Below are positions 15,346-63,120 of a DNA stretch of 64,000 bases, in pieces. Origin of the DNA: Utricularia gibba (lineage: Eukaryota > Streptophyta > Magnoliopsida > Lamiales > Lentibulariaceae). The notes under the pieces are model-generated. The model worked only from the letters and a program-made list of their open reading frames with translations. It made no database searches and was not told the DNA's origin. Where the stretch lies: assembly GCA_002189035.1 (NCBI GenBank), contig NEEC01000010.1:930001-994000 (forward strand). The letters are read 5' to 3'. Position 1 is the stretch's first letter; each line of letters opens with the position of its first letter. A program made the translations under genes and the position numbers.

Positions 15346-17605
15346 ATGTACATTTCTGAAAAATTGAGAACTAGATTCTTGATACTGGTGAATATGAGAT
15401 TTGGGACAAAGAACCGGATGAGTTGATTGAGAGTGAAATTCCAAACCGTGTTTGTCCACTGGGATTTGCCTTAAGCACGGAGCATTTTCGTTGTGGTTGC
15501 GCTTACCATTATTGCCCTTTTTAGAAGAAATATTAAAATGTTTAGAGATTACTTTATCTCATTTGACTCCAAGATCTATCTCATATGTGTTGGCTTTTGT
15601 GAGTATTTGTGAGGAGTTATCTCTTGAGGTGGAACTTCGTTATTTTTTTGCTGTGAGTATATACTCTAGGATTCTAAACAAGAACCACTACACCCAAAAG
15701 GGAAAAAAAGGGTTGGTGCTAGTGAAGGATGTGAGAAGAGAATTTGAGAAATGGTGGACAAGTTTTGTTTTGATATGTCCTCCAATGGAAACTAAATTTC
15801 CTCAAATTCATCCTAATTCGAGTGAAGTAGGTAAGACAAAAGGTAAATCTTTCATTGTATTGTTAGAAAAAATATGAATAAAAATATTTCATATTTTTAT
15901 TTCATATTTGTATTGAATGTTTTTATTAAATGTATTATGATTGAGAATTTTTTTTAATCTACTTTGATTAAATCTATTGTTATTGAATAGTTTTCTTAAA
16001 TGTTTTTAGTGAAGTTAATCTTATTAAATCTAGTTTTTATTGAATATTTTTCGGAATCTACTTTTATTCAATCTAATCTAATTAAATTTGTTTGTTGATT
16101 TTTGTAATCTCTTATTATTCAATATTTTTGAAAGAGATTTTTTTTGAATGTATTTTTATTCAATCTATTCGTATTGAATACTTTTTTTATCTATTTTTAT
16201 TCAATCTATTATTATTGAATATTTTTATTGAATATTTTTAATTTATTCTTATTGAGTATATATTTATAGAGTTTAGTGTTATCGAATATTTTTATTCACT
16301 ACCCTTTTCGAATATGTGTATTCAATTTATTGATGTCGAGTTTAAACTTATCGAAATTACACATATTTAATATTTTTATTGAATATTTTTGTTGAATCTA
16401 TTGTTAATAAATCTACTTTTTTTGTATAATTTGATACATTGCACAAGAGGATGTACAAGATCTTATCCTCCTCTCGTCAAGTATGCAAAGAAGTTTTATT
16501 GACATTTTACCACCATTTGTGGATGCACTGGGGACAAAAAGAATAAAGACTTGTTTAGGAATGAGAGGACACATGAGAGTAATGATGTTGAAGAGGATGA
16601 GCTCACACATGGTCTCAATGATGTGGATGAAATGTTTGAATTTATAACAAAAGAGAATGAAGAGCTTCACTACAAGTTGGATTGGTATGAGAGCCGTTGG
16701 GCATATACTAGACCCTCTTTGAGTTCCTCTGAGCCTCAACGAAAGCTAATAATCTTGGATGTCAATGATGTGCTCCTAGACATTGTGTATAGGACTGGAC
16801 CGTCAAGGTCACGAATCCCTCCAGATAAAATTATATATGGCCGATCAGGTACTAAGACAACACTTATTTTTGTGTGTTATATGCATTCAAGATTTGTGAG
16901 ATATCATAGGTAAGTTTTGGTGTAATTTATGCAGTCTTTCTACGTCCATATGCCCGTAACTTTATTAAGTGGTGTTTGGATAATTTTGATGTAGCCTTAT
17001 GGTCTTTCTGTGGCGGGTACATGTGTTGCATTTTTTTTTTGTTGGTATTTAGAATGATGCCAATTCTTGCAATTGATTTGTTTTGTAGGGAGCAGCTACA
17101 AGCAATCACTAAATGGGTCTTTTCACCTTCATTATTTGATAAACTCATTTTTGTGTGGGATCAAACGATGACTATGGACACAGGTGCACGTGTTCACAAC
17201 AATCCTAGCAACACGGTCTACATGAAAGAGTTGAGTCGTGTATGGGCTTTCAACAATGGATTAAACACAAAATATGACCTTCACAATACCTTATCGATTG
17301 ATGATTCGCCCCACAAGTAAATGAAAAATCCGGTAAGTCATTTTTGCTATTCTACTCTAGCATACACTTAGTTATACATCAAAACTAACTCTTAATTTTT
17401 CAAGAAAATAATTGCAAGTCTCTATTCGCATACTAATAGGGATGATGCATCACTAAATGTTGATGGTGAGATGCGAACTTTCCTTGAAGGGTTACAGTAT
17501 GCTCATGATGTTCCAAGTTATGTTAATGAGAACCGAATAGGACAGGCTCCCATACATGAGGGACATGCCTTATGGGAGTATTATGCATGCCTACAAGATT
17601 GCTAG
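15346..17605 (+). pseudogene. Cargo gene copy (a): Transposase_28-like + FCP1/NIF-type HAD phosphatase
   Basis: Exons inferred from GT/AG sites and paralogues: 15346-15842, ~16448-16848, 16935-17016, 17089-17332 and 17405-17605. Exon 1 resembles the Transposase_28 type (LRLPLLPFLEEIL, LTPRSISYVLAFVSICEEL, FEKWWTSFVLICPP). Exon 2 has a charged linker and the HAD motif I region, KLIILDVNDVLLDIVY. Later exons give RPYARNFIKWCLDNFDVALW, KLIFVWDQ, LSIDDSPHK and the C-terminal LEGLQYAHDVPSYV..GQAPI block. FCP1/NIF proteins are Asp-dependent protein phosphatases, but here motif I reads DxN, not DxD. Damage: a 1-base loss near 15384 (seen against 57093-57314) and TAA at 17318-17320. The gene lies inside the hAT, downstream of its transposase. 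Confidence 0.8.
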
Positions 17606-17934
17606 AGTGAGCCTCTAATATTAATTCTTTTGAACACCTATGTTGTAGTTGGAATATTTTTGTTGATGACTTTTTTTTTCTAATCGATAATTATGTTTTT
17701 GTTAGTGTTAAATTCATTAAATTCCCATATGCATCGTGTGAAATATGCTCTAGTGAATAGTGATCCTTTAAATCCATTTTGGAGGCACGTATAATGATTT
17801 CTAACGGTGCCTCTAATGCCTCGGCAACGTGTACCTCAGATTAGGGTTGTTGTTAGAGGTCATCCAGTCACTCTGATTCATTATCGAGGGTACCTGAGAT
17901 CTTCTCTGGAGATTGGACACCCTTAATTAGACCT

Positions 17935-18120
17935 GGGCACGGGTCGTGACTCATCGGGTAATGAATCAGACTCGTCGAGTCTCTTTTCTATTACGGGTTC
18001 ACAAGTCGACGAGTATACGAGTTTTGAACCCCAACTCGTATCATACCCGAGTTGACTCATTACCCATCGATTCGTCGAGTTGACTCGAGTATAAACTCAT
18101 CAACTCGTATTTTTTTCTTA
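17935..18120. repeat. Second hAT-like terminus with GACTCG/CGAGTC subterminal repeats
   Basis: It begins 'tagacctgggcacgggtcg' and continues with many direct and inverted copies of 'ctcgtcgagt', 'gggtcgtgactc' and 'gagttgactc'. This layout is typical of a hAT end, but the motif differs from the 10741 family. It marks where similarity to the deletion derivative stops. Confidence 0.55.
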
Positions 18121-18376
18121 TTTTTTTTAAATATTTTTCTATTTTTAAATTAATTATTTTTTGTGTGATTATGTTTTTATTTATATATATATTACTTGTT
18201 GTATGAATAAATACACAATCGTGTAACAGACTGTAACTCAAGGAAGTATGCTAGAGCAGCGCTTCTTGAGATGTAGATGTTTTAAAGTACCTCAGTCATC
18301 CAACTCTCTAAAGCATGCCTACGTTGAGATGGATTAATATAAGTTAGAACAAAAATGCCACAAAACCAACTAATAC

Positions 18377-18758: not shown

Positions 18759-18782
18759 CTGTAAGAAATGACTTAATCTTTG

Positions 18783-19795: not shown

Positions 19796-19921
19796 CAATT
19801 GAACAAACCAGAAAATCCAAGGAAAAAAGAACGTTTTTTTTGGCGAAAATACCCAACTACGAGGACGGGGGCTACAATCCCTTCTGAGAGGCATAGGTGT
19901 TTTCCCTCCTCCTTTACCGTC

Positions 19922-20440: not shown

Positions 20441-20445
20441 TACAA

Positions 20446-20464
20446 TTCCCCGGCAACGGCGCCA
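20446..20464 (-). other. Primer binding site, tRNA-Asp type
   Basis: The minus strand reads 'tggcgccgttgccggggaa' just inside the upper LTR. This is the complement of the 3' end of plant tRNA-Asp(GUC) and is the usual primer of Athila/Tat-type gypsy elements. Confidence 0.92.
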
Positions 20465-20472
20465 AAAACTTA

Positions 20473-30148: not shown

Positions 30149-31004
30149 CATGATAATAGCATGTGATGCACGAAATCTGATTATGTTGGATTGTTTTGCT
30201 GCCCTAGGATGCATGAAATTTGATTGATGATTGATGCTTTTGAGAATCATATCTTACGTGTATATGCGCAGCATGTTGATGGTTTATATGTGTGTAATTA
30301 TGGGGCATGATGGCCTTTGCACAAATTTTGATCATGTTGATCATATTGGTGAATTATCGATGCATATGATGTTTGATAATTTATTTGTGACCAAGGAATC
30401 TAGGGTCAATTAGGATTTTCGAGCTTTATGTATGAAAATCTAGGGAAATGATGCGTTATTAACGAAAGGGAAAGGGTTGTCATGATTCCTATCTGATAGG
30501 ATATCAATATCCATAGTGCAAGGGTTGCCTATGGAAAAATCCCCTATCAAATAATTTAGTGCATAGAGTTGTTGGCTACCGTCAACCTCCCCACTACACA
30601 TGACATGTTCGAATTATGGAATTAGATTCATGGTGGGTTGGGTTAACTGATTTTATCAACGTGTTGACTAAAGCCAAGGTTGGTAAAATTGGAGGAAAGG
30701 TTGATGTAAATAGTTTTTACATCATGAGTTGATGACTCAATCATACAGTGGTTGTATGAGATATACAATTGGCATGAGATGACTACTTGTTTCATTCATT
30801 AAAGCTTGTTGGCTACAGTCAAGGTGGAGATGAATGAAATGGGACACTATCCCACTAAGAAAATCTGATTTTCTCGTTTTGTTAATAAGGGGCTGCCATC
30901 TCGAAAAACATAGTGGGAGTATATCACATTTAGTAAAGACCAGTTAGATGTGATTTAAGGAACACTACATGATGTGCTTGCTTTCTCTTCTTCAGGTTGA
31001 AGAT

Positions 31005-32072
31005 ATGTCTTCCAGCGTGAATTTGAAATCCATTCTAGAGTCCAACAAGTTGGTTGGCTCGAATTTTACTGATTGGCACCGCAATTTGAGAATTGTTCTC
31101 AAGGCGGAGAAGATTGCTTACATCCTTGAGCAAGATGTTCCTGCACAACCCAGGGCTAATGCAGCTGAAGATGTTCGGTGTGCATATCAGAAGTATCTAG
31201 ATGATGCTGAGCTTGTCTCCTGTATCATGCTTGCTTTGATGGCCCCTGATCTCCAAAAACAGCACGAGGCGATGACTTGCCAACAGATGATAACACACCT
31301 CAAGGATCTGTTTGGTGAGCACTCACGACTTGAAAGGTTCAAGACATCAAAGCTGTTGTTCAATTGTCGCTTGGCAGAAGGAAGTTTTGCTGCTGATCAT
31401 GCGACATTGATGTTGAGTTACATTGAGAAGTTGTCCACTCTTGGTTTTGTGTTGGATAAGGACTTGAGTATTGACTTAATCCTTACCTCACTACCTGATA
31501 GCTACTCACAGTTTGTGATGAACTATAAGATGAACAAGATGGATCAAACTGTTCTTGAATTGATTCAGTTACTCAAGTCTGTTGAGACAACTATCACAAA
31601 GGAACAAAAGAATGTCATGCTTGTCTCTTCAAGGAAAAAGGTTTCCAAGATGAAGAGTCAAGACAAGAAACTCAAAGATAAAAGTGAGATCAAGAAGAAG
31701 AAGCCTATTGAAAAACCGACTAAGGGTGAATGCTTTCATTGTGGGAAATCTGGTCATTGGAAGAGAAACTGCAAAGCCTATCTAGAGTCAATCAAGGGCA
31801 AGAAGCAGAATGAGAATTCAGCTTCAGGTATACACATGATTGAGATAAACACTACTATCAAGAATGGTTCTTGGGTGTTAGATTCTGGTTGTGGTGCTCA
31901 CATTTGCACTAACTTGCAGGACCTAATGAGTAGTAGAATCTTGAAGAAAGGCGATGTTGACCTAAGAGTTGGGAATGATGCACGAGTTGCTGCCATGGCA
32001 GTTGGGACTTGCCACATCGCCCTACCTTCTGGATTATCTCTTGAATTAGATTTTGTTTATTGCGTTTCTTGA
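31005..32072 (+). pseudogene. gag: Copia 2 gag and protease, ending at an in-frame TGA
   Basis: The ATG at 31005 opens the typical copia gag start (MSSSVNLKSILESNKLVGSN, then FTDWHRNLRIVLKAEK). A capsid region, a Lys-rich stretch and a CX2CX4HX4C zinc knuckle (CFHCGKSGHWKRNC, near 31732-31775) follow, then the aspartic protease (WVLDSGCGAHIC, near 31873). TGA at 32070-32072 interrupts the frame, which continues unchanged into integrase. One point mutation explains it. Confidence 0.9.
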
Positions 32073-34005
32073 TTGTCTAAGAACATCGTCTCTATTTCTT
32101 GTTTGGACAAGATTGGTTTCGAGTTTTCTATAAGGAATAGTTGTTGTTCCATACGACGAGGGAATGTGCATTATGGTACTGCTACGATAGTAAACGGAAT
32201 ATATGTTTTGGATCAGCATGATTCGGAACAGATTAACATGTGCATAAAAAGGCCAAGGATTGACAATGTCTTGAATTCTTACCTCTGGCATTGTCGTTTA
32301 GGCCATATAAACAAGAAGCGTGTTGAGTACTTATATCGATTGCGATATTTGGACTCAGAAGATTTTGAATCTTATGAAACATGCGAATCTTGTTTATTGG
32401 GCAAAATGACAAAGCAACCTTTTCTAGGAAAAGGAGTAAGAGCTGAAAATTTATTGGATTTAATACATTCTGATGTATGTGGTCCAATGAGCATCACTGC
32501 TAGAGGGGGTTTCTCGTATTTCATCACTTTTATAGATGACCATTCAAGATATGGATGCATCTACTTGATGAAACAAAAATCTGAAGCCTTTGAAAAGTTC
32601 AAAGAGTTTCGGATGGAGGTCGAGAACCAGCTTGAGCGTTCCATCAAGAAACTTCGATCAGATCGTGGTGGGGAATACTTGAGTAATGAATTCAAGAATC
32701 ATCTGAAGGACAATGGTATTGTCTCAGAAAGAACTCCTCCTGATACACCTGAGCACAATGGTGTTTCTGAGAGGAGAAATCGACTTTTGCTTGACATGGT
32801 TCGATCCATGATGAGTTTTGCAGAACTACCAAAGTCCATGTGGGGATATGCTTTAAAGGCAGCAGCTCATGTTTTGAACAAAGCCCCATCGAAATTGGTT
32901 GAAACCACTCCTTATGAGATTTGGACTGGCAGAAAACCGAGTTTCTCCTATCTCAAAGCTTGGGGGTGCCCTGCTTATGTAAGAAGGTTGAAATCAGATA
33001 AGTTGGAGAACAAATATGACAAGTGTTTCTTTCTGGGATATCCACAAGAAACCATGGGATACTACTTCTATAATCCTCAAGAGGGAAAGGTTTTCATCTC
33101 GAGGAATGCTGTCTTTTTAAAAAAAGAGTTTCTCCTCAAAGAAGCAAGTGGGAGTCGTTTTGAACTTGAGGAGATGTTTGAGAACGAGCCAGTGACACCT
33201 ATAGAGATGCCAGTGGGTGACTCAAAAGGTAATCTAGGCTCACCATCTCGAAATTGTGTCCCAGAAGCTGGTAATGTACCAGTGAGCAATCAACCTGAGC
33301 AATCTGACTTGCCAAATGTACCAAGCACGTTTTCTGTTAGAAGATCAGTCCGACAACGTAACCCTATTGTGAGATATGGTTTCATTGTTGATGTCGAAGG
33401 CATGGGAGACCTCATATTAGATGAGGAACCTCGGACTTATGGCGAAGCAATCAATAGTGCTGAGTCAAGTAAATGGCTTGTTGCCATGAAGGCAGAAATG
33501 GATTCCATGTATGAGAACAATGTATGGACATTGGTCAATGCTCCAGAGGGAGTAAATCCTATTGGATGCAAATGGGTATTCAAAAGGAAAACTGACATGG
33601 ATGGAAATATATCTACCTATAAGGCACGACTTGTGGCAAAAGGGTATCGTCAAAAACAAGGTGTTGATTATGACGAAACCTTCTCGCCTGTTGCTATGCT
33701 GAAGTCCATTCGAATTTTACTTGCCATTGCTGCTCATTTTGATTATGAGATATGGCAGATGGATGTGAAAACAGCCTTCCTAAATGGAAATTTGGCTGAG
33801 GAAGTGTACATGACACAACCTGAAGGTTTCACACAAGATCCTAGTAAAGTGTGTAAACTGAATAAATCCATCTATGGGCTAAAGCAAGCTTCAAGAAGTT
33901 GGAACATCAAATTTGATGAGACAATCAAAGAGTTTGGTTTCTCTCAAAATGAAGATGAACCTTGTGTATACAAGAAGGTAGATGGCTTGGCAATCGTATT
34001 TCTCA
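32073..34005 (+). pseudogene. pol: Copia 2 integrase and truncated reverse transcriptase
   Basis: Integrase has the zinc domain ([11 protein letters not shown], then CESCLLGK), the core motifs [19 protein letters not shown] and the Glu in [10 protein letters not shown], and a C-terminal region to ~33300. RT has [45 protein letters not shown] and [12 protein letters not shown]. The copia frame is lost just after [13 protein letters not shown], where the YVDD catalytic motif should follow. The active site is therefore absent. Confidence 0.92.
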
Positions 34006-34320
34006 AAAGGAGTACATGTTTACCCAAAAGGAGCTCAACCTGTGGTAAGGATGATGGTTAGAACTGATTAAGGATTTCGAATTGGAGGTAAATTACAACC
34101 CTAGCAATGCTAATGTCATGGAAAATGCGCTATGCCGAGTGATGGTGCATGAAGACTTCGCAATGGAATTGGCAAGGATGGAGATTTGCATGGATACAAC
34201 CACTAGCATAACTATGCTTCGAGTAGGGACGAATTTCTTGGAGCAAATACAGGCATCGCAACATGAGGATGACATGGGAGAAGTACTGCGGGAGGACATG
34301 GAGAAATCAGTTGGACTGTA
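34006..34320 (+). pseudogene. Ty3/gypsy RNase H fragment fused to copia 2
   Basis: In changing frames it reads [11 protein letters not shown], then LIKDFELEVNYNP and SNANVMENALCR. This corresponds to the end of gypsy RNase H and the following linker (usual motifs [10 protein letters not shown] and YHPGKANVVADALSR). It contains a stop after KELNLW. No LTR or other gypsy domain adjoins it. Confidence 0.8.
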
Positions 34321-35500: not shown

Positions 35501-36593
35501 CCCATGCCCTCTCAATAACATTCCTAAGCATGCTGCATGTTGAAATATTCCTTCGCATTCTGTGGAGCATTGGACCTTGCACACCACTCTTTTAGATGGT
35601 ATCGAACACCCCTGTAGGGTGCTAGAAATCCCTATGCGTTTGTGTAGCCATTATCACACAAGTAATAATGCCCTACAAAAAAATGGAATGCATGAAAGTC
35701 ACTCATAACTATGGACTTATACACATTGTAAGCACTTACCTTTGCATACAGTGAATGCTCTTTGTCAACAAACTACATCAAGCAGCATGCTATCAGCAGC
35801 GGACACCTTCCAACCGGACAACAAAGAGATGAACTTGAGCTTCTCATCACACACTCCTAGCACATTAGTGGACACGATTCCTTTACGATTCCTCCACCTA
35901 GAAATATGAACCATCTAATGCGCCCAAGCAATTCTGAAAAATAGAGCAGAAAATTACAGCATGCAGAATACACATTGCAAATTCACAACTATAATGAAAA
36001 ATCTCCTTGCATACCTTGAAAAATCTGAAGCTAGAATTAGGATCAAAAACATCAATTGGCATAGGTGTCTTAAGTAAATTTTGGTGCAATGACAGCACCG
36101 TTGACAATACCACATTGAAATATTTGGACACTGATCAGCTGCTTCGCATGAATTCAAATTTTTGTTGCCTTGTTTTCCTGTGATGACCTAAAATACCCAA
36201 AAACAATGCAACTTACTCTGGAACATTGACATACCTTGAAGTGGATAGTCTACCATTACTTCGAAGAACATAGCACAACTTGTTGAAAACATCTACACTT
36301 AATCGTAAGTTTTCAAGACAAGCACTCCTTGAATCAAATAACAAAGCAGTCAAATGCTCTATTTGTCGCGATATCTTTTCTCGGTATGAGAACCGAATTC
36401 TCCTATCGGTTGGTGTACAGTAGAAATGCAACATTATAACAATCATAATTCGCATAACACATAAGTGCTGACCAACGCAATGCGCCGCAGCAAGGGCAGC
36501 CAAAATAATCTTCTTTGAAACCATTGCAACAGCCTGAATAAGCAACGCACAACCTACTGCAATTTTCGGAAAAAAATCACCCGACTCCATCAT
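35455..36593 (-). pseudogene. PIF/Harbinger-type transposase (nuclease), degraded
   Basis: The minus-strand N-terminus (ATG near 36593) has SACLENLRLSVDVFNKLCYV and GRLSTSRYVNVPE, typical of plant PIF/Harbinger nucleases and ALP1-like proteins. A donor at ~36226 and an acceptor near 36180 lead to VSKYFNVVLSTVLSLHQNLL, an interruption, and NCLGALDGSYF (first catalytic Asp, near 35910). Then come NVLGVCDEKLKFISLLSGW with SAAD (second Asp) and GFLAPYRGVRYHLKEW, and RNVIERAWDSQIPPD at the cut end. The C-terminal region is gone. Stops occur after MRSS, after GSYF and in YTNA*GFLAP. It lies on the same strand as the cargo gene upstream (37143-42649). Confidence 0.88.
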
Positions 36594-36599
36594 ATGCGA

Positions 36600-37142
36600 A
36601 ACAAAAAATAAGAACTCTTGACTTAAATTGAAGTATGGGTTTTCGTCGAAATATCAGAATTCGAATTCACTCACCATGTACCTGCAAAAACCCACAGATT
36701 TGTATTGAAGAGGATGAACCAATACACAGATTTACTGTTGCGAATTTGCTTATGCAGCGCCACAATGTAACGACCCGCAACCTGCACCCTAGACGCTAGT
36801 TCATTACCGACATCCTACCATGCCCCGGGTGTCACCTCATTGAAGGAGATGGGCTAGGGACATGTGTTTGGGTGCATGCTCCCTCGCCAAACTACTTGTC
36901 CTCGACACGCAGTGATCCATGACGGCTTGTTCGCAGCAAGGAACGGGGCGTACGAAGGTCCCTCACCATATCCTCTCACCATGACACCTCCCATCGCAAC
37001 CCATTGGTAGTAAAGCATAATTTATTAGAAAAAAATGTGAGCAAGATTCAGCCCAACCGAAAAAAACAAGGAATCACGAAACGAGTAGCATGCGAAGACA
37101 ACCAACAAGAAATGCTCCCTCTACACTCACTCGGAGACCCTC
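36600..37142. other. Spacer between PIF relic and cargo gene (c)
   Basis: GC-moderate sequence with a block resembling gypsy or promoter DNA ('gtaacgacccgcaacctg'). No coding motif is recognised on either strand. Confidence 0.35.
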
Positions 37143-37453
37143 ACTACGTGCCCGCCTCTTGAAGGAGCGCTTCATCGCGTTCCATATACTTTCTCCTCCA
37201 CTCATCCACCTCTTGATCCCGGTGCATAGGATGAATCTGAGGTGGCATATCATGGGATGGCTCCCCATCGCCCACATCGATGTCATCGTCGGGAGTAACC
37301 TGACGATAACTTCGAGGATCACGACTATACGATGCAGGCGCACCCCTTGTAAGCCGCTAGGAACCTAGAACATATCATTCAAAAGCAATACTCAAATTTG
37401 AATAACACGTAAAATTGCATACCCTCCTCATCAATGATCATGATGGAAATCAT

Positions 37454-37875
37454 TGTTGGCTGATGATAAGCTAATCTTGGACAATTTTATGAGACCCGCT
37501 GAAGATTCTGAAGTGCTGTTTGAATATGCTGTGTGCGACGAGGAAGAAGAACGAAAGGGGATGGGAAAGAACTGATGGCTGAATCAGCAGATGCTGGGCC
37601 AAATACCAGCTTCAAATGGTGTAAGATTGCATGCGGGCCCTTCGTAAGCAGCCCAAGTCTGTGCCCAAGAGAAGGACCAAATCCAAGATGGCCCCGATTG
37701 ACGGCAACGGTAACCTGCAAAGCATTCCTGTGCTCAACGGTCACAAAAAAGGGGTCTATAAATAGAAAGACAAATATGTAACCAAATATATTTTTTTATA
37801 CAGTTTTCTTCCAGAATTCTTGCCTAATCTCTCGAGCACTAAGGCTCCCAGTTAGTGAGCTACAGACTTCTTACA
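37454..37875 (+). repeat. 5' LTR of copia 3
   Basis: 422 bp, begins 'tgttggctgatgataag' and ends 'gacttcttaca'. A TATA box 'tctataaatag' lies at 37755-37765. A primer-site-like 'tggtgacagctgtggg' follows at 37876. Confidence 0.92.
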
Positions 37876-37970
37876 TGGTGACAGCTGTGGGATTTCCTTG
37901 AGAAATCACAAGCATAGATTCAAGTTCGGCTACAAATCAGATCCTACCAATCTTTAGCAAGTCACACTCC

Positions 37971-38880
37971 ATGGCCTCATCATACTTCATGCCTCCTCCT
38001 ACATTCGATGGCAGAGGTGACTACGATGCCTGGGCGGACAAGATGTCTGTCCATTTAGACAATCTGGACCTCTGGGACCTGTTTGAAGAAAATGAAGAAG
38101 AAGAGCAAGCGGATACGGCTCAATCAAAAGAACGAAAATCTTCTTCTTCAGATATGGAAACTGCAGCAGAAAAGAGGCACAGAAAAAAGAGGAAAAAGGC
38201 AATGCATGCACTTACCTTGGCCATGACTGATGAGGCCTATGATCTCATTCTGGACTGCCGATCTCCTAAGAAAGCCTGGAACATACTGCGAAAAATTATG
38301 CCATGACAACAGAAAGGCGACAAAAGGAAATAGCAAAGCAGTGGCATATTCTCAACAACCTCAGCCTGAAACCAGGTCAGTCCATCAGTGATTTAACGCT
38401 CTCTATGAGTGCAGTGGCAAAGCGGCTAAAAAAACTGGGACAACCTGTTGACGATGGTAGAGTTAAAGACAAAATCCTTAAGTGTGTGGGAAAGGACTTC
38501 AGAGCATGCATTGGGATGCTATCCACAACTGGTCTTCTAACCACATACAACTACGAAAAATTGCTGGACACACTCTACAACTTTGAGCAAGTTTAGAAGA
38601 CATATGAAAGGCATGACGAAACTGAGCAAGCTTTCCAGGCAAAGTCTCAAAAAAGAGTTGAAAAACGAGGAGCATACCCTGAATGCCCACACTGCAAGCA
38701 GAGGAACCATCCAGTTTCGAGTTGTTTCTATAACCCAGATAAGATCTGCAACTTCTGCAAGGAGAAGGGCCACATCGAAAGGGTATGCAAGAAGAGATTT
38801 GAAGAAAAATTCGCACAGAAAAATGATGACAAGAAAGAATCAAACTCTACTGCATTGAACTCTGTATGCTATTTTTCTGA
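37971..38880 (+). pseudogene. gag: Copia 3 gag, frameshifted
   Basis: The ATG at 37971 begins a copia gag (MPPPTFDGRGDYDAWADKMS). The frame shifts near 38300 and has a TAG at 38594-38596. Further on lie two zinc knuckles (CPHCKQRNHPVSSC and CNFCKEKGHIERVC), an arrangement less usual than the single knuckle of the other copias here. Confidence 0.82.
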
Positions 38881-38929
38881 TGCCAAGGAAGTCATTGATA
38901 TCTACAAGCTGCACAAAGACACATACTCT

Positions 38930-40540
38930 CAATCACTAACGACATCACAAACAAAGGAACGTGGCTTATAGACAGTGGATGCAGCAACCACTTAACTCAC
39001 AAATTCAGCGCATTCACAAGCTACAAGCCACTGAATGGGAAATCAATAGAAGTCACTGATGGACGACTAATAAGAGCACATGGGATAGGGACTGTACAAC
39101 TTGAAACTTGCGAGCACATACTAAAGATACAAGATGTATACTACGTACCCAAAGCCTCCCACAACCTTCTGAGTGTAGGACAGCTTACCTCTAAAGGGCT
39201 GAACGTCACCTTCAATGGAGCTCTTTGTAGCATATATTCATCATCTGGAAGACTTCTTCTTGAAGTCAAGATGGAAAGCAGAATTTTTCCTATAAGATTT
39301 CAAACTGATAAAAACCTAACTGACACCTGTTTTGCAGCTAAAGATGATGCCTCACTCTGGTACAAAAGGTTTGGCCATGTGAACTACTCCTCACTGGCTC
39401 ATGCGTCAAAATCCAACCTGATGGAGGGAATACCAAAACTGGAACAAGACCATAGGATATGCGAAATCTACCAAATCGGTAAACTCTCTAGACGACCGTT
39501 CGGAAAACGCACCTGGATCACCACCCAGAAGCTAGAGCTAATCCACAGTGACGTATATGGACCCATAAACATCTCAACATCTACAAGAAATAGGTATTTC
39601 TTAATTTTCGTAGATGATTACACTAGATACTGCTGGATATTTATCATCCCTAGCAGATCAGAAGTGGTGAACTGTTTCAAAGCCTTCAAGGCTCAAGTTG
39701 AGAACCAAAGCAGGCAAAGAATTAAGTACATTAGATCTGATAACGGTGGTGAATACATACCGTATGAGTTCACTGAAATGTGTGAACGAGAAGGGATTAT
39801 TCACCAGTTTACTGCACCCTACGAGCAGAATGGCGTAAGTGAAAGAAGAAACAGAACTATAATTGAAATGGCCAGATGTCTGATGTATGAGAAAACCGTA
39901 CCAATGACCTATTGGGGTGAAGCAGTCAACACCGCCGTGTACCTCCTGAATCGACTGCCCACCAAGGCACTGATCGAAAAGAAAACCCCATTTGAGATGT
40001 GGCATGGGAGAATTCCACGGGTTGATCACATCCGCATCTTCGGTTGTGTATGCTATACTCACATCCCAAAACAAAGAAGAAGGAAATTAGACAGGAAAGC
40101 ACTAGTAGGTGTCCATCTAGGATGCAGTGATATAACCAAGGGATACAGGGTATTGGACTTGTCGAGCATGAAAATAAGAATTAGCAGAGACGTGGTCTTT
40201 GATGAATTGAGAGCCTGGGATTGGAGTTCAGGTTACATTGAACCAGTACAGAATCAAGGAAAAGATACACTGGGCCTATTCCTCGAGCTCAAGGAAATTG
40301 ATGAAAATACATTTGAAAGAAAACACCCAAGCCAAGAGACAATCGATACACATGAAGCAGAATCAGACTCTCATCAGAATACAAATCGTGAACTTCAGCC
40401 AAATGTTGAAGGCAATTGGGAACCAACAGATAGTGAAAATATGGTATCAGACCAACAGATATTGACTTCTACTCATTACACGGAACCTGATGAGAGGAAT
40501 TTATCTATTGACAGAAATAATGAAACAGAGGGTAATAGGT
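38930..40540 (+). pseudogene. pol: Copia 3 protease and integrase; RT and RNase H absent
   Basis: The protease (WLIDSGCSNHLTH, near 38960) lies in a frame offset from gag. Integrase follows: LWYKRFGHVNYSS, a zinc domain whose second Cys is replaced (CEIY), HSDVYGPI, YIRSDNGGEYIP and the Glu of NGVSERRNR. The C-terminal linker runs to about 40530, after which the open frame only reads through antisense cargo-gene sequence to a stop at 40578. There is no RT motif anywhere in the element. Confidence 0.87.
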
Positions 40541-41192
40541 ACCATAACCTTGACGACCATACAGCGACGTCGAAATAGGCGAAGCATAATTGCAGGAACC
40601 TCGAAACATGCGGCCTAATAAACACTGCATCCAAAGACGGGAGGGATTAGAAAGCATTATAAAAGTCACAATGGAAATTAAATAACTTACAGGCTGTCCC
40701 GTTTCCCATCCGTCTATTTGGAGACCTGTTGACTTGCCCATGAATGACATGAGCAAGCAAGCCATTCACGTCTAGAATGAGCAACTTCATCACCCGTCGC
40801 ACGGTTCGTGGTACATGAGTTGAGGAGCGCTCTGCAGACTCCTCTCTGGTCTTGGTCTGTGTTTGAAGGAGCGCTTCATCGCGTTCCATGTACTTTCTCC
40901 TCCACTCATCCACCTCTTGATCCCGTGCCTCCAACTCCCGTTGCAATCGCTGGATTTCAGCTTCCATAGGATGAATCTGAGGTGGCATATCATGGGATGG
41001 CTCCCCATCGCCCAGATCGATGTCATCGTCGGGAGTAACCTGACGATAACGTCGAGGATCACGACTATACGATGCAGGCGCACCCCTTGTAAGCCGCTGG
41101 GAACCTAGAACATATCATTCAAAAGCAATACTCAAATTTGAATAACACGTAAAATTACATACCCTCCTCATCAGTGATCATGATGGGCATCG
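40541..41192 (-). pseudogene. Cargo gene copy (c'): captured segment inside copia 3
   Basis: Minus strand: GYTMPIMITDEE, a donor, then the linker exon (41097 downwards; PPQIHPMEAEIQRLQRELEA, VDEWRRKYMERDEALLQ, a likely coiled coil). It runs on to KLLILDVNGLLAHVIHGQVN (HAD motif I with DxN) and a consensus donor 'gtaagt' near 40689. The next exon (~40621 downwards) gives FIRPHVSRFLQLCFAYFDVA and WSSR. It includes sequence that flanking copy (c) lacks, and lacks 9 bases found at the insertion site, so it comes from a different paralogue. Introns are retained, which argues against capture of spliced mRNA. Confidence 0.8.
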
Positions 41193-41295
41193 TATATGTA
41201 ACCAAATATATTTTTTTATACAGTTTTCTTCCAGAATTCTTGCCTAATCTCTCGAGCACTAAGGCTCCCAGTTAGTGAGCTACAGACTTCTTACA
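41193..41295 (+). repeat. Partial 3' LTR of copia 3
   Basis: It matches the last ~103 bases of the 5' LTR (37773-37875). The first ~320 bases of the LTR are missing, replaced by the captured segment. Confidence 0.92.
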
Positions 41296-42649
41296 ATCAT
41301 GGGCATCGTATAACCCTTGGCCACCCAAGCTGACAATAGTAAATCACGGGTCTCCTTATCATATGCCCTCACGCCTAGGAGACAAAGAGATGAAATGAAG
41401 CCACATTAAAATTGAAATAGATGAACAAGTAAACAAAAAATATTACCTTTTATCTTGCCTGTGACACCCGGCTCCAAAACTCGAGGGATGCGATACACGT
41501 CTTCCAAAGGTGGACGTATCCACAGAAAAGTGCGCCACCATGAGCCGAATGACTGTGGGAACCCGAAGTGGATACCCGACCCCCGGAGCGGTCGTATCGA
41601 GAAGCGGCCATCGCGTAGAGCAATGACCTCTACAATTGAACGGAAGGCACGCAAATCACATGGCGCATCCTCTTCCTCACACATCATGATAAATGCTCTA
41701 ATCGTCCCTACCGACTGAGGAGTGATACGGGCGAGAGGCACTCCCATAGCTCGCAGCACTATCTCGTTGAACGAGTGAAGCGGGAGTCGAAGACCACATT
41801 CCATATGGCTCAAGGCAACTGAGAACCCAGTGGCACCTACTCTGCTAGGTGGCTCATCGTCAATTGTCTCCCATTCCTCCGGCATGAATAACGTATAATC
41901 TTCAGGAACATAATACCTTACCCTCACATTATCGACTACTTCTATCGCACTACAAGCAAATATAAATGAAAACTAGTTATTTAATTACAAATAATGTTTA
42001 AAAACAAGCAAATAAAAATTCATCTTTTGTTACACCAAAAATTTCTTTATTAAATTAAAAAAATTATTTCTTATTGAATGAATATTTTAGAAAAGAAAAG
42101 TATCATTTATTCCAATAATAAATCATTCTTAAAAAAAAAGAAAAATAAAAAACATTTTTTGTAACAATAAAAGTTATTTACATAGCAAATACTTGTTTAA
42201 ATGAAAAGTAAATCATTTCTTTACATAATGCATCATTTAATAAAATAAAAAGTTATTTATTTACGTAAAAATCATTTTTATAAAGACGAATCATTATCAT
42301 TGGATTAAAAAACGCTTTTTAGACAAATAATAAAGAAATCATTTCTTCAATTGACTATAAAAAATAAAATCTTACATGAACCTTTAAACTTTAAATCATT
42401 CCAAACCCTAAAATTAAATTCCCACCAATATCAGAATAAAAAACAATCCAAAAAACCTAAATTAAAGACATAAACAATTTTCGCACAAACCCATACCTTG
42501 GTTGCAAAAGAATTGGGCGGAACTTGAGTCGATGGAGGCTGCTGTGGTGGCGACGGCGACAGGCCCACGCCGGTCTGGGACTTCCCGCCAAACGGCGGTG
42601 TGAGGAGGAGGAGGAGGTGGTGGTGGTGCGGCGGAAGGAATAAGGGCAT

Positions 42650-55930: not shown

Positions 55931-58900
55931 TAGAGGTGGGTTCGGTTCCGAACCGTACGGTTTCGGTTCGGAACCGAACGGTTTCAACGAACCGTCGGTT
56001 CCAAAACCGCGGTTCACTGTAGACAACGGTTTCGGTTTCGGTTCGGAATCGTACGGACGAAACCTTGAACCGAACCGAAACCGGAACCGTACGGACGGTT
56101 TCGGTTTGGAACCGGAACCGAGATTCGGGAACCGAACCGTAACCGGAACCGATCGGTTATTGTTTATAGGTGTTTTCCAGGCACCCATATGAATCATTGT
56201 GGATGTATGGCAGTGAAATTTATAATAATTATTATTTTTTTAAAATTTAAATATTATCAAACAATATATTTAATAATATTTATTTTTGTATTTAACTAAA
56301 TATATTATGTAATATACTATATTAATTTATAAAAACTATAACTTAAATTACTTGATAGACTATCTCAATAAAATATAATTAAAATCAATATAATATATGT
56401 CTTAAATAAATGAAATAAATAATTAAATTATTAGTATTTGAATATATATTTGATAAAATTAAATTTTTTAAAACAAATACAACAAGATTACAAATCATAT
56501 AAAATGAATAGAATTATTATTTATATATTTGTTCTTTTAAAATGAAGATGTTTATATAGTTGTTTTATATAATGTTTTGTAAGTATTGTGTATTTTTCAA
56601 ATTAAAATAAAACAACATCTATTTCATATATTTTGGAAACAAAATATTAGAAGGATTAAATATATTGCATTTTCAAAATTAACATCACATATTTCACGTC
56701 TCTTAATAATCGTTAAGGGTGTCAAGGCTCCAGAGAAGATCCCAGTCACCCTCAATAACGGATCAAAGTGTCTGGACAACCTCTAACCGTAATCCTAATT
56801 TTAAAGTGTGCGCTGCCTTCATTAAGAGTGTCCAGACTCCAGAGAAGATCTCAGGCACCCTGAATAATGGATCAGAGTGCCTGAACGACCTCGAATGACA
56901 ACCCTAATTCTGAGGCTCACGCTGCTAAGGCATTAGAGGCACCCTTAGAAATCATTATACGTGACTCCAAAATGAATTTAATGGATCACTATTCACTAGA
57001 GCATATTTCACACGATGCATATGGGAATTTAACGAATGAAACACTAACAACATAATTGTCTACTAGAAAAAAAAGTCATCAACAAAAATATTTCAACTAC
57101 AACATAAGTGTTCAAAAGAACTAATATTAGAGGTTATCTCTAACAATCTTGTAGGCATGCATAATCCCATTAAATGCTCCGTGCTTAAGGCAAATCCCAT
57201 TGGACCCACACGGTTTGGAATTTCACTCTCAATCAACTCATCCGGTTCTTTGTCCCAAATCTCATACACATCCGGTATCAAGAATCTAGTTCTCAATTTT
57301 TCAGAAGTGCACATCTACAAAACACCCATAGGTATTGTAATCAAACTACAATAATTGGACAAGATATTTCAATTTGGAACATAGATCAGCAACCCATGAT
57401 GAAAAATAAATCACATACCTTGTTTAATTTAAACAACACTCCAACTAGGTGGTGGGACTATGGGGGCGTTCGGTCGCTTTCGGCTGGGGGGGGGGGGACG
57501 GGGGAAAGAGGTAAGAAAATTTTCTTACCAAATGGGTGGGGATTAGGGTTGTCTTAATTGTCAACGTGGCGAGTGGGTAAAGTAGGGACTGGGGTGGTGA
57601 TGTGTAGCGCTATGTATGGGTGCGTGAAGAGTTGGTTTTCAGTAAATATTTTTGCTGATTTCAAATGAGAAGTGTCGCTCGCTTGAATCGATCCAAACTC
57701 ACTGTGTAATTTTTTTGGAAATGCTGTTTAATTACTCCAATTTTGAGGCATCCAGAGTCGCTAATGTGGGCGCCTGACACCGTCACCCGTAAAATTATAT
57801 TATCTAGGCACCCGTACCCTAATATTTGGGAATTGCGCAATTTTAAAAGAAGACTTAATTTTCAAAAATATACCATTGTTTTCGTGCATTAATTGGATTA
57901 TAAGAAATTGAAAATGAAATTCTTTCATATATCCTAAAAATTACAAAAAAAAATTAAATGACATGTTAATTAAACATTGAAATAAAATTTCAGTAAATAA
58001 AAAATTTTCATGTGTCGTTTAGACCATCTTCCAGACACCCACATTGTATCGTGTGATTGTCTGGAAAGACAGTAGGATACCCTTTTCCAGGCACCCACAA
58101 TGCCTCGCGTGGGTGTCTGGGAAGAGTGGGCGAGACCATTTCCAGGCACCCATATTTGCACATGTGGGTGTCTGGGAGTGTGCAATCATATTCCAGGCAC
58201 TCTATCTTTAGGAACGATAAGGATCGAGTCCATTATTTATTTGACTTAAAAATATTGCACTCTATCCTTATGTTTTCTAAGGATCGAATATCAGTGTATA
58301 ACAAAAAAAATGCACTCTATATTTAGGAACGATAATGATCGAGTGTATTATTTATTTGACTTTAAAATATTGCACTCTATCCTTATGTTCGATCCGTATG
58401 AGTGCAACCCTATTCCAGGCACCCACATTTGCGCATGTGGGTGTCTGGTAAGGATGTATCCAAAGGTTTTGGTAAGTGCTCGGATCATATAATTTTAATG
58501 AAAGGCATGAATACAATGTACTTCATCTTCATACAAAGTAATAGTACTTTATTGGCAACGCATAACTAGTTATTGAGAAAAATATGTAGGTAATGAAATG
58601 TTAAAATATTTATTTGGTTGAACTATCGAAATTATTCAATAAATTTGAGTAATTTAGTATTTTCTATTGAGGTTATACATTTTATATTTATTAATTTCAT
58701 TCTAATTTTATAATTTATAGTATATAAATAAATGAAATAAATTATTAAAGTGATAAAATTATCAGTAATTGAAAACATATACAATAAAATTAAATTTTTT
58801 CAGACACCAACATTAGCTTGTGAGTATTCGAGAAGAACATCTGAAAAACGGAAACCATTCCCTGACCACCCACATTTACTCATGCCTCATGTAGGAGTGT

Positions 58901-59289
58901 CATAAGGGTGCCTCAGATCATTTTCCAGGCACCCACATCTATTGTCTGTGTCTAGGAAGGGGTGTTTCAAAAGATTTTCCAGGCATCCACTTTCATCGTA
59001 TGGGTGTCTGAAATCATATACATTTATTTTTTTTAAAATTTTTTAATTTTTTTTAATTTTTTAATTTTTAATTTTTTAATTTTTAATTTTTTTTTAATTT
59101 TTTTTGGTTCCGAACCGACGGTTTCGGTTCGGAACCGTGAACAGTACGGTTCATACATGGGTCGGAACCGTCGGTTCCACGGTTCCAAATTTGCCGAACC
59201 GAACCGAACCGGAACCGTACGGACATCCACCTCTTGGAACCGAACCGGAACCGGAACCGCGGTTCCGGTTCGAACCGAACCCACCTCTA
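55931..59289 (-). mobile_element. Non-autonomous hAT deletion derivative carrying a cargo-gene remnant
   Basis: Both ends read 'tagaggtgggttcggttc' inward, with GGTTCGG/CCGAACC-rich subterminal zones. The flanks are an 8 bp target duplication with one mismatch (gttttata 55923-55930, gtttcata 59290-59297). Read on the minus strand it follows 10741-17930: terminus, A/T tract, the 11580-11775 block, a jump to 14290 (transposase deleted), the palindromic cluster, the start of the cargo gene, a jump from ~15483 to ~17580 (most of the gene deleted), its 3' flank, and a right end that the large copy lacks. Confidence 0.9.
57093..57314 (-). pseudogene. Cargo gene copy (b): first-exon remnant
   Basis: The minus-strand ATG at 57314 follows an acceptor-like 'ttttgtag'. 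The frame reads RTRFLIPDVYEIWDKEPDEL and GPMGFALSTEH, the start of the Transposase_28-like region. It then crosses the deletion junction into former 3' sequence, stopping at 57093. It keeps the base that copy (a) has lost near 15384, so it derives from a less damaged ancestor. Confidence 0.75.
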
Positions 59290-59344
59290 GTTTCATATGT
59301 GTAATTGTTTACTTTCGTGCATTTAGTTTGTAGTAATGTATTTA

Positions 59345-60425: not shown

Positions 60426-61065
60426 TTGTTTATTAATTTTTTTGTGAAAATAGGCTCAATTGGAAACAATTGAGCCGAAAACTCTAATGTTTCTTTCTAG
60501 TGTGTTTCTAAGTCTTAACATGGTAAGAGGTAGTACTAGCAATGCACTTTCTGCATTGAAGAGTCAAAAGGGACAGAAAAGCTATGAAAAAGTAGCTTTT
60601 AATCGAAAGTAGCCGCCCTCTAAAAAGATAAGATTTAGAGCAGAGTTTAACATGTCTACTGTTCACACTACCCTTTACTCTTTTTTTTGGGCATGACAAA
60701 GCTGGGTTTAAGTTATGGACTCTCTTAAGTGACACAAGAGTTAGATTCTCGTGTAAAACCTAGCCAAATCACTTCCGCTTTACATTTTTATGCATTCCCA
60801 TTAATTTCTATGTTCATTCACCCTTGCAGCTTGTTTATTTCAATTGATATTATTTTATATACAGGAGGAGCACCAAGACTGTGTCTCGGTGCTTCCAAAA
60901 GGTGTTGCATGTGGTAATTTGCCTCCATGAGGTGGTGTTAGAAATCCCGGTAGTCGCTGCAGAACGTGCATCCGAAGGAAAGTTTAAACACTTCCAGGTT
61001 GACACATCTTTCATGCTTCTTTTTACAGATGCTTGTAGCACACCACCGTTGTGGGCAGCACCACG

Positions 61066-61415
61066 TGTTTCACCGTATCCGGTGCTCATAAAAATTAAAG
61101 ATGAGATGAGTGTGAAGCTGATGCATAGTAGTGAGGGTATTTGGTAGTACAGTTAATCGTCATTTGACGAAACACCGCGAACCGTAATATGCGGTGCTTC
61201 TGTACGCTTGGGCTATGCCGCGTTCAGTGCTGCACCGGATGTTTCCTCGTATCCGGTGCTGTCAAAATTTAGAAGTAGATGTGTATGCAACTGGTATATG
61301 TTAGCGTGGGTGATTGGTAGTACAATAATACTCCATTTGACCAAACACCGCGATCCGTAATATGTGGTGTTTCTAAATGCCTGAGGTACGCTACGCATTC
61401 CACAGCACCGCGAAA
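61066..61415 (+). repeat. Tandem duplication, two ~174 bp units
   Basis: Units start at 61066 and 61240, each opening 'tgttt', then 'cgtatccggtgct', followed by 'ggtagtaca', 'catttgac' and 'aaacaccgcga'. They differ by substitutions and small indels. Confidence 0.8.
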
Positions 61416-61557
61416 ACATAATCCGGTGTTCTGAGTTCCAAAAACAAAATGCCATAAAATATTGCAGTTATCCAGCATTAAATGCGAAGGGCGGTTGACA
61501 ACCGCCCAGCGCTATTAATACCCCCTAAAAATAAGCGCACAATAAAGGCGCCTGACA

Positions 61558-63120
61558 TTGTGCACTTTCCAAAACAACTTCATTAATTCTACCCATCCAA
61601 CTCCACCCTTTCGGAAAACGTGCAGCAGCACTGCGAAAACGGGGAGCCCGCACTACTCGCTTCATGGAAAACCTGGTGTGGTAGTGGTTACAGACGTGAG
61701 AAGCGCATATGATGATTGGTGGACTAGTTTTGTATGGGTATGCCCACCCACCGCTACAGAATGGCCAACAACGTTGACAGTGTCAGAAAATGTGGGACAC
61801 CCATCAGGTAATCATAAACAATTACTTCGGATATTCACATGTCTTGTTGAACAGTACTCATATTTTTTTGCTGTTTGCGTTGTAAGCATAGAGGTATTGC
61901 CAAAACGTGCGGCAAGGAGGTTTGTGAATTTATTCTCTTGCAGAACAAAGTCCTTGGAGGACGTCTTGCCCCCCTTCATCAATGCCCCTAGGAAACAGTA
62001 TCTGTGGTGCGGAACCCCTCGACACCGTAGACAACGTAGCAGTACAAATGATGATCTTGAGGAGGTGACCCATGAAGAGGATGAAGATGTGCAGCCAGAA
62101 GTCGGGGGCAACACGGAGGGGCCAACACCGATTACGACACATGACGACGGGTGCGGTGCTACCACTGCAAAGTATATCCAAATGGACAGACTGTATGCAG
62201 AGAATCTTGATCTCTGTGGTCGGCTTGCATGGTATGAAGCAAGGTGGCCATACGGTGGACCATCGAGTGATAACACGGCCCCCACCACGGAAGTTGCTTA
62301 TATTTGACGTGAATGGCGTACTTTCGGACAGTGTGTATCCTCGCGAAGTCAGATGGGGAGCGCCAAAGCCGGATGCCGTCATTTACGGGCGAAACGGTAA
62401 TGCAATGTCATTGATATGCATTTAATATTTGGTGCATGTGTCAGTACTATTTCTTGTGCTTGTAGTGTATCTTCGACCAGGTGCACGTGAGTTGATACAG
62501 TTTTGCATGGAACACTTTGACGTTGCCATCTGGTCTTCAAGAGGGCGGTAAGACTGACCACCTAGCAGACAAGGGGGTCCGCATTCCTACTGACATTTTT
62601 TTTTCTGACGACATGTGGCAATGAACAATTGCACGATGTGATTCAGTGGTTACTAGGGACTGCAGCAGCCAGCAAGCTCGTCTTCCAATGGGATGGATCC
62701 AGGTGTGTGGACACCGGCTATCCGGTGCACGATAACAGGAACACAGTTAAGCTTAAGCTTTTGAATCATGTATGGGGCGCCAACCAAGAGTTCAAGGGCA
62801 AATATCACCGTCTTAATACGCTTCTCATCGATGATGCGCCGTACAAATCACTACACAATCCGGTGAGTTTCTGGTTGTGCTCATTCTCCACCATCTTGCA
62901 TCCTATTTCACTTGTTTAGTTTCATTCGACAGCCCGAAAATGTCATATTCCCAACCACCTTCAAGTACACCGCGGTCAATGATTGTTCGCTGGTTCAAGG
63001 GGAGATATTAGGACGTTCCTAGAAGCTCTCATTGACCAAATGGATGTACCCACGCACGTCGATCGCCGTCGGGTAGGTCAACGTCCAATAGACGAGGAAC
63101 ACCCATTGTGGAAGCATTAA
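61558..63120 (+). pseudogene. Cargo gene copy (d): partial Transposase_28-like + FCP1/NIF phosphatase
   Basis: Exons inferred: up to 61807; ~61925-62396; 62466-62547; ~62620-62862; 62933-63120. The N-terminus starts midway in the first domain (SLHGKPGVVVVTDVRSAYDD, WWTSFVWVCPP) with no ATG. The linker has EVTHEEDEDVQPEVGG and LYAENLDLCGRLAWYEARWP. The phosphatase part has KLLIFDVNGVLSDSVY (motif I, DxN), RPGARELIQFCMEHFDVAIW with SSR, KLVFQWDGS, LLIDDAPYKSLHNP, and a C-terminal end with GGDIRTFLEALIDQ and DEEHPLWKH. Exons 2-5 keep near-complete domain coverage. Damage: a 1-base frame change between linker and motif I (62245-62285), and no AG at the expected exon 4 acceptor. Confidence 0.82.

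What the first reader, a model, noticed from the sequence alone, without database searches (positions are those of the whole stretch)
15346..63120. One transposon-borne gene family, Transposase_28-like + FCP1/NIF phosphatase, in several unrelated mobile contexts
Versions of the same two-part gene occur in a hAT element (15346-17605), its deletion derivative (57093-57314), beside a PIF transposase and split by a copia (37143-42649), inside that copia (40541-41192), and in a GCACCG-rich element (61558-63120). All share the N-terminal GLRLPL../WW.SF../PP region. Copies a, c' and d also share the charged linker, the DVNG-type motif I and the phosphatase exon borders. I know of no described plant element class that habitually carries an FCP1-type phosphatase. 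It could be a selfish cargo, a host gene captured once and spread, or an accessory transposon protein.
Basis: partly seen in the sequence, partly recalled or inferred. Interest (0 to 1): 0.85.

Follow-up and report, generated by a model that had tools for sequence, protein, structure and literature searches.

The report
Phosphatase gene shared by unrelated transposons
In this plant genome, unrelated kinds of jumping gene carry versions of the same extra gene, a transposon-associated domain joined to a phosphatase of host type, which looks like a helper the elements use to stay active, although that function is untested.

Summary
Joined proteins of five element types match Pfam Transposase_28 and NIF/FCP1 phosphatase above cut-off. 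The held 100 Mb has at least 108 phosphatase loci; 57 have Transposase_28 just upstream. Placement is ordered: PIF/Harbinger transposase upstream, same strand, at 34 of 108 (shifted null mean 1.1, max 7); Myb ORF downstream, opposite strand, at 24 (1.1, max 6); hAT within 6 kb at 23 (5.8, max 14). Divergent versions lie beside MULE transposases. Copy d is PIF/Harbinger; copy a and its derivative are hAT; copy c is unresolved. Nearest-pair dN/dS is 0.42-0.62. Three intron positions match host DLNG/DVNG genes. The gene tree crosses superfamilies (hAT2 with PIF2, 97/93). AG(G)CACC-type repeats cluster beside the gene in hAT and PIF types; hAT2 and PIF2 share a 12-bp version; two MULE loci lack them. 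Transposase_28 alone is published in Retand retrotransposons; my open-access searches found no phosphatase fusion. Best reading: an accessory protein exchanged between transposons that acts at element repeats. Its biochemistry is untested, and motif I is D-x-N.

The parts
10741..17926 (+). hAT1 element copy a, left end TAGAGGTGGATTCGG; right part lost or interrupted
   Evidence: Left end shared with the derivative and with the C304:440900-452600 relative
12929..14270 (+). hAT transposase (RNase-H-like and dimerisation domains), in two frames
   Evidence: PF14372 39.5 bits, PF05699 78 bits
14380..14900 (.). repeats of the CAGGCACCC/GGGTGCCTG type between transposase and accessory gene
15458..15853 (+). 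copy a, Transposase_28 exon
   Evidence: PF04195 31.8 bits; range
16521..16853 (+). copy a, linker and motif I exon (DVND)
16931..17602 (+). copy a, remaining phosphatase exons with introns and one in-frame stop
   Evidence: NIF 24 bits
55931..59289 (-). hAT1 deletion derivative with both terminal repeats and imperfect 8-bp target duplication
57093..57314 (-). remnant of the accessory gene (first and last parts joined) inside the derivative
41406..41972 (-). copy c, Transposase_28 exon
   Evidence: PF04195 38 bits
37159..37446 (-). copy c, linker part beyond the copia; no phosphatase follows
37454..41295 (+). copia retrotransposon inserted in copy c (flanks ATGAT), one LTR truncated
40541..41190 (-). 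c', fragment of a related accessory gene captured by the copia, intron kept
   Evidence: 86.7% identical to copy c over 324 bp
35502..36758 (-). PIF2 transposase-region fragment beside copy c
   Evidence: 84-91% identical to 12 other places over this stretch
60858..64000 (+). PIF1 element copy d, continuing to about 65220 (1.2 kb beyond the window); left part and transposase missing
61641..61810 (+). copy d, remaining end of the Transposase_28 exon
62288..63117 (+). copy d, phosphatase exons (DVNG motif I to C terminus)
63144..63447 (.). cluster of AGCACCG/CGGTGCT repeats downstream of copy d

Best explanation
The gene encodes a transposon accessory protein: an N-terminal Transposase_28 domain, a charged linker, and a C-terminal HAD phosphatase domain of the plant DLNG/DVNG type. 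Shown by sequence: it is a recurring, ordered part of PIF/Harbinger (two families) and hAT elements, with divergent versions beside MULE transposases; both domains are under purifying selection; the phosphatase part shares three intron positions with ordinary host genes; and its tree crosses transposase superfamilies, so it has passed between unrelated elements at least once. Inferred: the phosphatase part came from a host gene at DNA level and was fused to Transposase_28. Also inferred: the Transposase_28 part binds, or belongs to a complex that binds, the AG(G)CACC-type repeats beside the gene in hAT and PIF families, and the phosphatase part acts there on a phosphorylated chromatin or transcription protein (or, given D-x-N, holds it without catalysis), so that the element resists silencing or is better expressed. 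The nearest functional analogy is the VANC/KIU anti-silencing proteins of Arabidopsis MULEs.
For: Both domains over cut-off in five joined proteins. Ordered linkage to PIF transposase and Myb ORF and to hAT, with a local-shift null; MULE around the same 108 loci is not enriched. MULE enriched 5' of Transposase_28 loci lacking a close phosphatase match, 10 of 69 against a null mean of 1.3, max 6. Element ends. dN/dS 0.42-0.62. Introns. Tree. Repeats. Published prediction that Transposase_28 binds DNA (PMC11963269, passages).
Against: 39 of 108 loci show no PIF, Myb or hAT domain within 6 kb. Motif I is D-x-N in all five aligned types, so catalysis is doubtful. The repeats were noticed after looking, copies within a family are related, the genome-wide cluster count shows no excess (157 against 137 in the control), GCACC is only rank 50 and 84 of 512 in PIF2, and the two MULE loci read lack the repeats. 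No expression, binding or methylation data. The upper bound of dN/dS for hAT1 Transposase_28 is 0.96.
Confidence: 0.5

Rival explanations
1. Transposition cofactor rather than anti-silencing factor: the protein works with the transposase, for example by changing its phosphorylation or nuclear entry, or by binding internal repeats to build the transposition complex.
For: Fixed position next to the transposase and, in PIF, the Myb ORF; repeats lie beside the gene.
Against: The same gene family serves transposases of unrelated superfamilies, which fits a host-facing target better than a transposase-specific one.
Confidence: 0.27
2. Passive cargo: a captured host gene fragment that merely spread with its elements.
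For: Transduplicated fragments are known in plant PIF and hAT elements (PMC2528002, passages); many copies carry stops.
Against: dN/dS below 1 in both domains, the same fused architecture in five element types, same order and orientation across families.
Confidence: 0.08
3. Independent captures: hAT, PIF and MULE lineages each fused Transposase_28 to a DLNG-type phosphatase on their own.
For: MULE versions have long branches and uncertain places in the tree.
Against: Host rows form one side of a branch at 100/99 and hAT2 groups with PIF2 at 97/93; linker and exon borders are alike in copies a and d.
Confidence: 0.1
4. Nested insertion or chance adjacency: the gene and the transposases are separate repeats that happen to lie together.
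For: The region is rich in nested elements (c and its copia); 39 of 108 loci have no PIF, Myb or hAT domain within 6 kb.
Against: Local-shift null and a PIF1 element whose two ends enclose transposase, fusion and Myb ORF.
Confidence: 0.03

Closest known systems
TRP28 (PF04195) antisense ORFs of Retand Ty3/gypsy retrotransposons (PMC11963269; abstract and passages seen)
   Same: Same Pfam domain, accessory gene of a transposable element, function unknown, DNA binding predicted.
   Different: LTR retrotransposons, antisense to gag-pol; the passages seen name no phosphatase. Here the domain is fused to a phosphatase and lies in DNA transposons.
KIU / Ulp1-bearing VANC genes of Arabidopsis VANDAL MULEs (PMC13317346, passages seen)
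   Same: Host-derived enzyme domain captured in a transposon accessory gene; family-specific short motifs in non-coding DNA.
   Different: Ulp1 protease, not phosphatase; described there for MULEs; anti-silencing is shown for VANC but untested here.
Plant mobile domain proteins MAIN/MAIL1 with phosphatase PP7L (PMC7156037, PMC5418596; search listing and abstract openings seen)
   Same: Transposon-related domain working with a phosphatase.
   Different: Host genes that silence transposons; other domain and, by the names given, another phosphatase (recalled: PPP type).
Canonical PIF/Harbinger elements with transposase and Myb/SANT ORF (PMC4482050, passages seen)
   Same: Terminal repeats, TWA target sites, both ORFs in relatives of copy d.
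   Different: A third gene lies between them here.
UBLCP1 phosphatase (PDB 3shq, E 5.6e-6)
   Same: Only solved chain matched by the profile of the fusion at E up to 0.1.
   Different: Distant and without Transposase_28; function not transferable on this evidence.

Membership tests
PIF/Harbinger (copy d and relatives) | DDE_Tnp_4 transposase | tested here: met
   C505 relative: C505:223993-224550. Window copy d itself has none in the listed matches.
PIF/Harbinger (copy d and relatives) | Myb/SANT-like second ORF | tested here: met
   C304:994360-994644 for copy d and C505:228325-228597 for the relative
PIF/Harbinger (copy d and relatives) | Terminal repeats and TWA target duplication | tested here: met
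   C505:222935-229154, TAA on both sides; right ends followed by TTA or TAA in copies L053, L054, L055, L057 and d
hAT (copy a and derivative) | hAT transposase domains | tested here: met
   PF05699 78 bits, PF14372 39.5 bits
hAT (copy a and derivative) | 8-bp target duplication and short terminal repeats | tested here: met
   Derivative 55931-59289: GTTTTATA/GTTTCATA, one mismatch. Copy a: left end only.
MULE (L076, L080) | MULE transposase domain next to the fusion | tested here: met
MULE (L076, L080) | Element ends and 9-bp target duplication enclosing both genes | not tested
Transposase_28 (PF04195) | Profile match over curated cut-off | tested here: met
   28.3-37.6 bits in five joined proteins, cut-off 26.2
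NIF/FCP1 phosphatase (PF03031) | Profile match over curated cut-off | tested here: met
   24.0-37.2 bits in five joined proteins, cut-off 21.8
NIF/FCP1 phosphatase (PF03031) | Catalytic D-x-D motif I (motif recalled) | tested here: not met
   D-x-N in all five aligned types and in the two host loci whose motif I was fetched, C98 and C4: phosphatase-like fold by profile, not shown to be an active FCP1 enzyme
Retand TRP28 ORF | Encoded antisense in an LTR retrotransposon | tested here: not met
   Copies a and d lie in DNA transposons. The other Transposase_28 loci were not checked for LTR elements.
VANC/KIU anti-silencing factor | Causes hypomethylation and mobilisation of related copies | not testable with these tools
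   Only family-specific repeats were examined

The most novel reading that the evidence does not exclude
Plant transposons of unrelated superfamilies trade one accessory module: a repeat-reading Transposase_28 domain fused to a host-derived phosphatase, together with its GCACC-type target repeats, which counters silencing at the element. Silencing evasion would then be an exchangeable plug-in and not a property of each transposon class.
Probability: 0.33. Interest if true: 0.92.

Novelty: new variant of a known kind. Interest (0 to 1): 0.78.

Why it matters
Capture of host domains by single transposon families is known. One fused accessory gene, under selection and present in PIF/Harbinger, hAT and apparently MULE elements, did not turn up in the open-access searches made here. 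It gives the unexplained Transposase_28 domain a testable role, ties a phosphatase class to transposon biology, and offers a natural comparison: if repeat and protein co-vary across families, binding specificity can be tested directly.

Tried and rejected
Chance adjacency: rejected by the shift null; MULE around the 108 loci served as a flat control (5 against 4.7). CACTA: no Transposase_21 match in the held sequence; the tool warns that this does not show absence. A first guess that 10740 and 17926 are the two ends of one element was dropped: the left-end motif recurs at both ends of the derivative and at the right end of the C304 relative. Copy c as part of the neighbouring PIF: not supported. 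Relatives in other organisms: one EukProt host-type phosphatase; an alignment search found none; I do not know how many plants that database holds, so this says little. Structure of Transposase_28: two-row alignment, mean pLDDT 37.7, unusable, so no fold search was run. Repeat clusters: 157 matches against 137 for the reversed control, no overall excess; only their position near accessory loci is unusual, and 100 of 157 places were listed.

How counts were made: the 108 loci come from 143 exon rows typed into; rows that are further exons of a locus already typed were left out, and unlisted matches could not be used, so 108 is a lower bound. All 128 rows and 49 Transposase_28 rows were used. 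Each neighbour list holds at most 150 scored candidates. One search was given 25 PIF1 and 9 hAT1 loci and kept those covering over half of an exon. One search used 25 rows; c' was left out as too short. The PIF1 protein is a hybrid: N-terminal half from the C505 relative, phosphatase from window copy d. In L063 the phosphatase exon 3 is damaged, and its second intron border is unclear.
Full report
What is there. The window lies in an unnamed plant genome of which 100 Mb is held. It holds five pieces of one gene family that joins a Transposase_28 domain (PF04195) to a NIF/FCP1-type HAD phosphatase (PF03031). Copies a (15458-17602 +) and c (41406-41972 -) match PF04195 above cut-off, and one exon of copy a matches NIF. 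The gene is split by introns, so single exons score low; a genome scan with the NIF profile listed 20 matches, none in the window. Joined proteins of five element types pass both cut-offs: Transposase_28 28.3-37.6 bits, NIF 24.0-37.2 bits, with NIF matched nearly end to end in three of five. The PIF1 protein among them is a hybrid of the C505 relative and window copy d.

Genome-wide census. Exon searches with copy d's phosphatase and copy a's whole protein gave 230 and 153 matches. The rows used cluster into 108 phosphatase loci, a lower bound; 57 have Transposase_28 upstream on the same strand within 2.5 kb. PIF (PF13359), hAT (PF05699), PIF-type Myb (PF12776) and MULE (PF10551) domains were then placed. 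PIF lies 5' on the same strand at 34 of 108, Myb 3' on the opposite strand at 24, hAT within 6 kb at 23 (16 of them 5' on the same strand), MULE at 5. In 300 local shifts of 20-300 kb the means were 1.1, 1.1, 5.8, 1.5 and 4.7 and the maxima 7, 6, 14, 5 and 12. PIF-or-Myb and hAT contexts coincide at 1 locus; 39 of 108 loci show none of the three. A hAT on the opposite strand about 1 kb downstream recurs at four loci (three, one); one of them, C402:2510458, is in sequence closer to copy a, so the arrangement is not one family.

Which elements. Copy d belongs to a PIF/Harbinger family (PIF1). A relative with both ends, C505:222935-229154, is flanked by TAA on both sides and encloses a PIF transposase, the fusion and a Myb ORF. 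Copy d lost its left part; its right end lies about 1.2 kb beyond the window and is followed by TTA. A second PIF family (PIF2, L064) has the same gene order; its relative L065 shows fusion and Myb but no long transposase ORF. Copy a and the derivative belong to a hAT family (hAT1). Five of eight relatives compared show the transposase end on the same side and strand, and the derivative has both terminal repeats and an 8-bp target duplication with one mismatch. L063 carries the fusion convergent with a different hAT (hAT2). Among 69 Transposase_28 loci with no close phosphatase match, MULE lies 5' at 10 (null mean 1.3, max 6); of 18 further divergent phosphatase matches, 8 have Transposase_28 upstream and 4 of these have MULE within 7 kb. 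Two were read: L076, head to head with a MULE transposase, and L080, on the same strand. The ends of the MULE elements were not found, and the 5 MULEs near the 108 closer loci are no more than chance.

Copy c and c'. Copy c has no phosphatase. A copia element (37454-41295, ATGAT on both sides) is inserted in it. This copia contains c', a fragment of a related copy, antisense and with its intron, 86.7% identical to the matching part of c over 324 bp. The PIF2 piece beside c is a fragment. A 5.5-kb stretch, 42389-36887, is 99.87% identical to C304:865900-871400, which the DNA search did not list; biological duplication and assembly artefact were not told apart.

Origin of the phosphatase. Four host loci (C98:1242346-1243437, C4:3539359-3540534, C1:1523374-1524509, C505:1968870-1969715) encode DLNG/DVNG-type phosphatases. 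In window copies a and d and in the host genes three intron positions agree in place and phase: phase 1 before V-x-x-R-P, phase 2 shortly after the W-S-x motif, phase 0 after N-P (read; for two host genes only the far side of the first intron was fetched; the borders are not clear in every relative). The host genes have a further intron after LLFCW/LAFTW that the element genes lack. This fits capture at DNA level. In a 25-row tree the five host-type rows form one side of a branch at 100/99, PIF1 (100/99) and hAT1 (98/97) are each one group, and hAT2 joins PIF2 at 97/93. hAT and PIF transposases are unrelated (established knowledge), so the gene has moved between superfamilies at least once. 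The two MULE rows have long branches and uncertain places, so one or more captures are possible.

Selection. Nearest-pair dN/dS is 0.42 [0.32-0.56] for the PIF1 Transposase_28 exon (17 copies, 8 pairs), 0.44 [0.30-0.71] for phosphatase exon 4 (23 copies, 11 pairs), 0.43 [0.23-0.70] for exon 5 (20 copies, 10 pairs), 0.62 [0.45-0.96] for the hAT1 Transposase_28 exon (9 copies, 4 pairs) and 0.46 [0.22-0.83] for its exon 4 (7 copies, 3 pairs). Many copies carry stops, and no transposase was measured for comparison.

Active site. In the five aligned types D289, N291, S341-S342 and D414-D415 (numbers of the first row) do not vary. Motif I thus reads D-x-N, as in the two host loci with motif I in hand. 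That active FCP1 enzymes have D-x-D is recalled. A weak or purely phospho-binding role is open.

Repeats. The hAT and PIF families have dense short repeats beside the accessory gene: AGGCACCC in hAT1 (11, 4 and 9 in three copies, shuffled max 1), AGCACCG in PIF1 (12 and 13 in two copies, shuffled max 3), and CAGGCACCGCAA with up to two mismatches in both hAT2 (19) and PIF2 (13 and 8; shuffled max 4); two MULE loci have none. As a pentamer GCACC ranks 1 or 2 of 512 in four PIF1 copies, 1, 13 and 14 in three hAT1 copies, 18 in hAT2, 50 and 84 in PIF2, 77 and 387 in MULE, and 92-305 in five backgrounds. Clusters GGTGC-GCACC-GGTGC: 14 of 71 merged clusters from the 100 listed places lie near accessory loci (null mean 1.2, max 6), at 12 loci; the genome-wide total shows no excess (157 against 137). 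The word was chosen after looking, copies within a family are related, and elements without the gene were not available as a control. The shared 12-mer of hAT2 and PIF2 could also have travelled with the gene.

Second Transposase_28 gene. At 8 loci another Transposase_28 match lies 1.1-2.2 kb downstream of the phosphatase on the same strand; 6 of the 8 have hAT in range. Its ORF was read in four of them (L003, L005, L008, L059); in three (L003, L005, L008) an ORF that looks coiled-coil by eye follows, probably the same gene.

Mechanism. Most likely a repeat-targeted accessory protein: Transposase_28 as reader, the HAD domain as effector on a phosphorylated chromatin or transcription protein, helping the element resist silencing. 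Shown: fusion, ordered linkage, selection, exchange, co-occurring repeats. Inferred: DNA binding, phosphatase or phospho-binding action, anti-silencing. I give about 0.9 to 'selected accessory gene of DNA transposons' and 0.5 to the full statement.

Known background. PMC11963269 (abstract and passages) reports TRP28 (PF04195) in antisense ORFs of 97% of Retand clusters, with predicted DNA binding and unknown function. PMC13317346 (passages) reviews Ulp1 capture in MULE genes and VANC anti-silencing; its main text has no occurrence of phosphatase, FCP1, Harbinger or hAT. PMC2528002 (passages) reports transduplicated fragments in grapevine PIF and hAT elements. PMC4482050 (passages) describes the PIF ORFs. 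PMC10606437 (passages) counts PF04195 in circular DNA. Harbinger with FCP1 gave no paper; NLI interacting factor with transposon gave 8 (listing only); FCP1 homology with transposable element gave 1, on Trichomonas introns. Subscription papers and repeat libraries were not searched, so priority cannot be claimed.

Noticed in passing
C1:4837140, C142:571810, C213:3039907, C3:5136928, C304:449885, C402:1352469, C413:3652097, C414:470281: A second Transposase_28 gene lies 1.1-2.2 kb downstream of the phosphatase at 8 loci, so some hAT1 elements seem to carry two Transposase_28 proteins.
   Followed up: partly
window 42389-36887; L083: A 5.5-kb stretch holding copy c, its copia and c' is 99.87% identical to C304:865900-871400, about 105 kb away in inverted orientation; duplication or assembly artefact.
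   Followed up: partly
window 37454-41295: The copia has taken up a plant gene fragment in antisense, with its intron, where its reverse transcriptase part would be expected.
   Followed up: partly
own genome, PF02992: No CACTA Transposase_21 domain was detected in the held 100 Mb; unusual for a plant if real, but the tool warns that it does not show absence.
   Followed up: no
window 3426-8050 and 30954-34061: Two further copia-like polyprotein stretches with long open frames.
   Followed up: no
window 17927 onward: Copy a breaks off at 17926 and an unrelated TTAGACCTGGGCACGGGT sequence follows, perhaps the end of another element.
   Followed up: no
own genome, 69 Transposase_28 loci: Transposase_28 loci without a close phosphatase match, some in long open frames, may include Retand-type ORFs; LTR elements around them were not checked.
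   Followed up: partly
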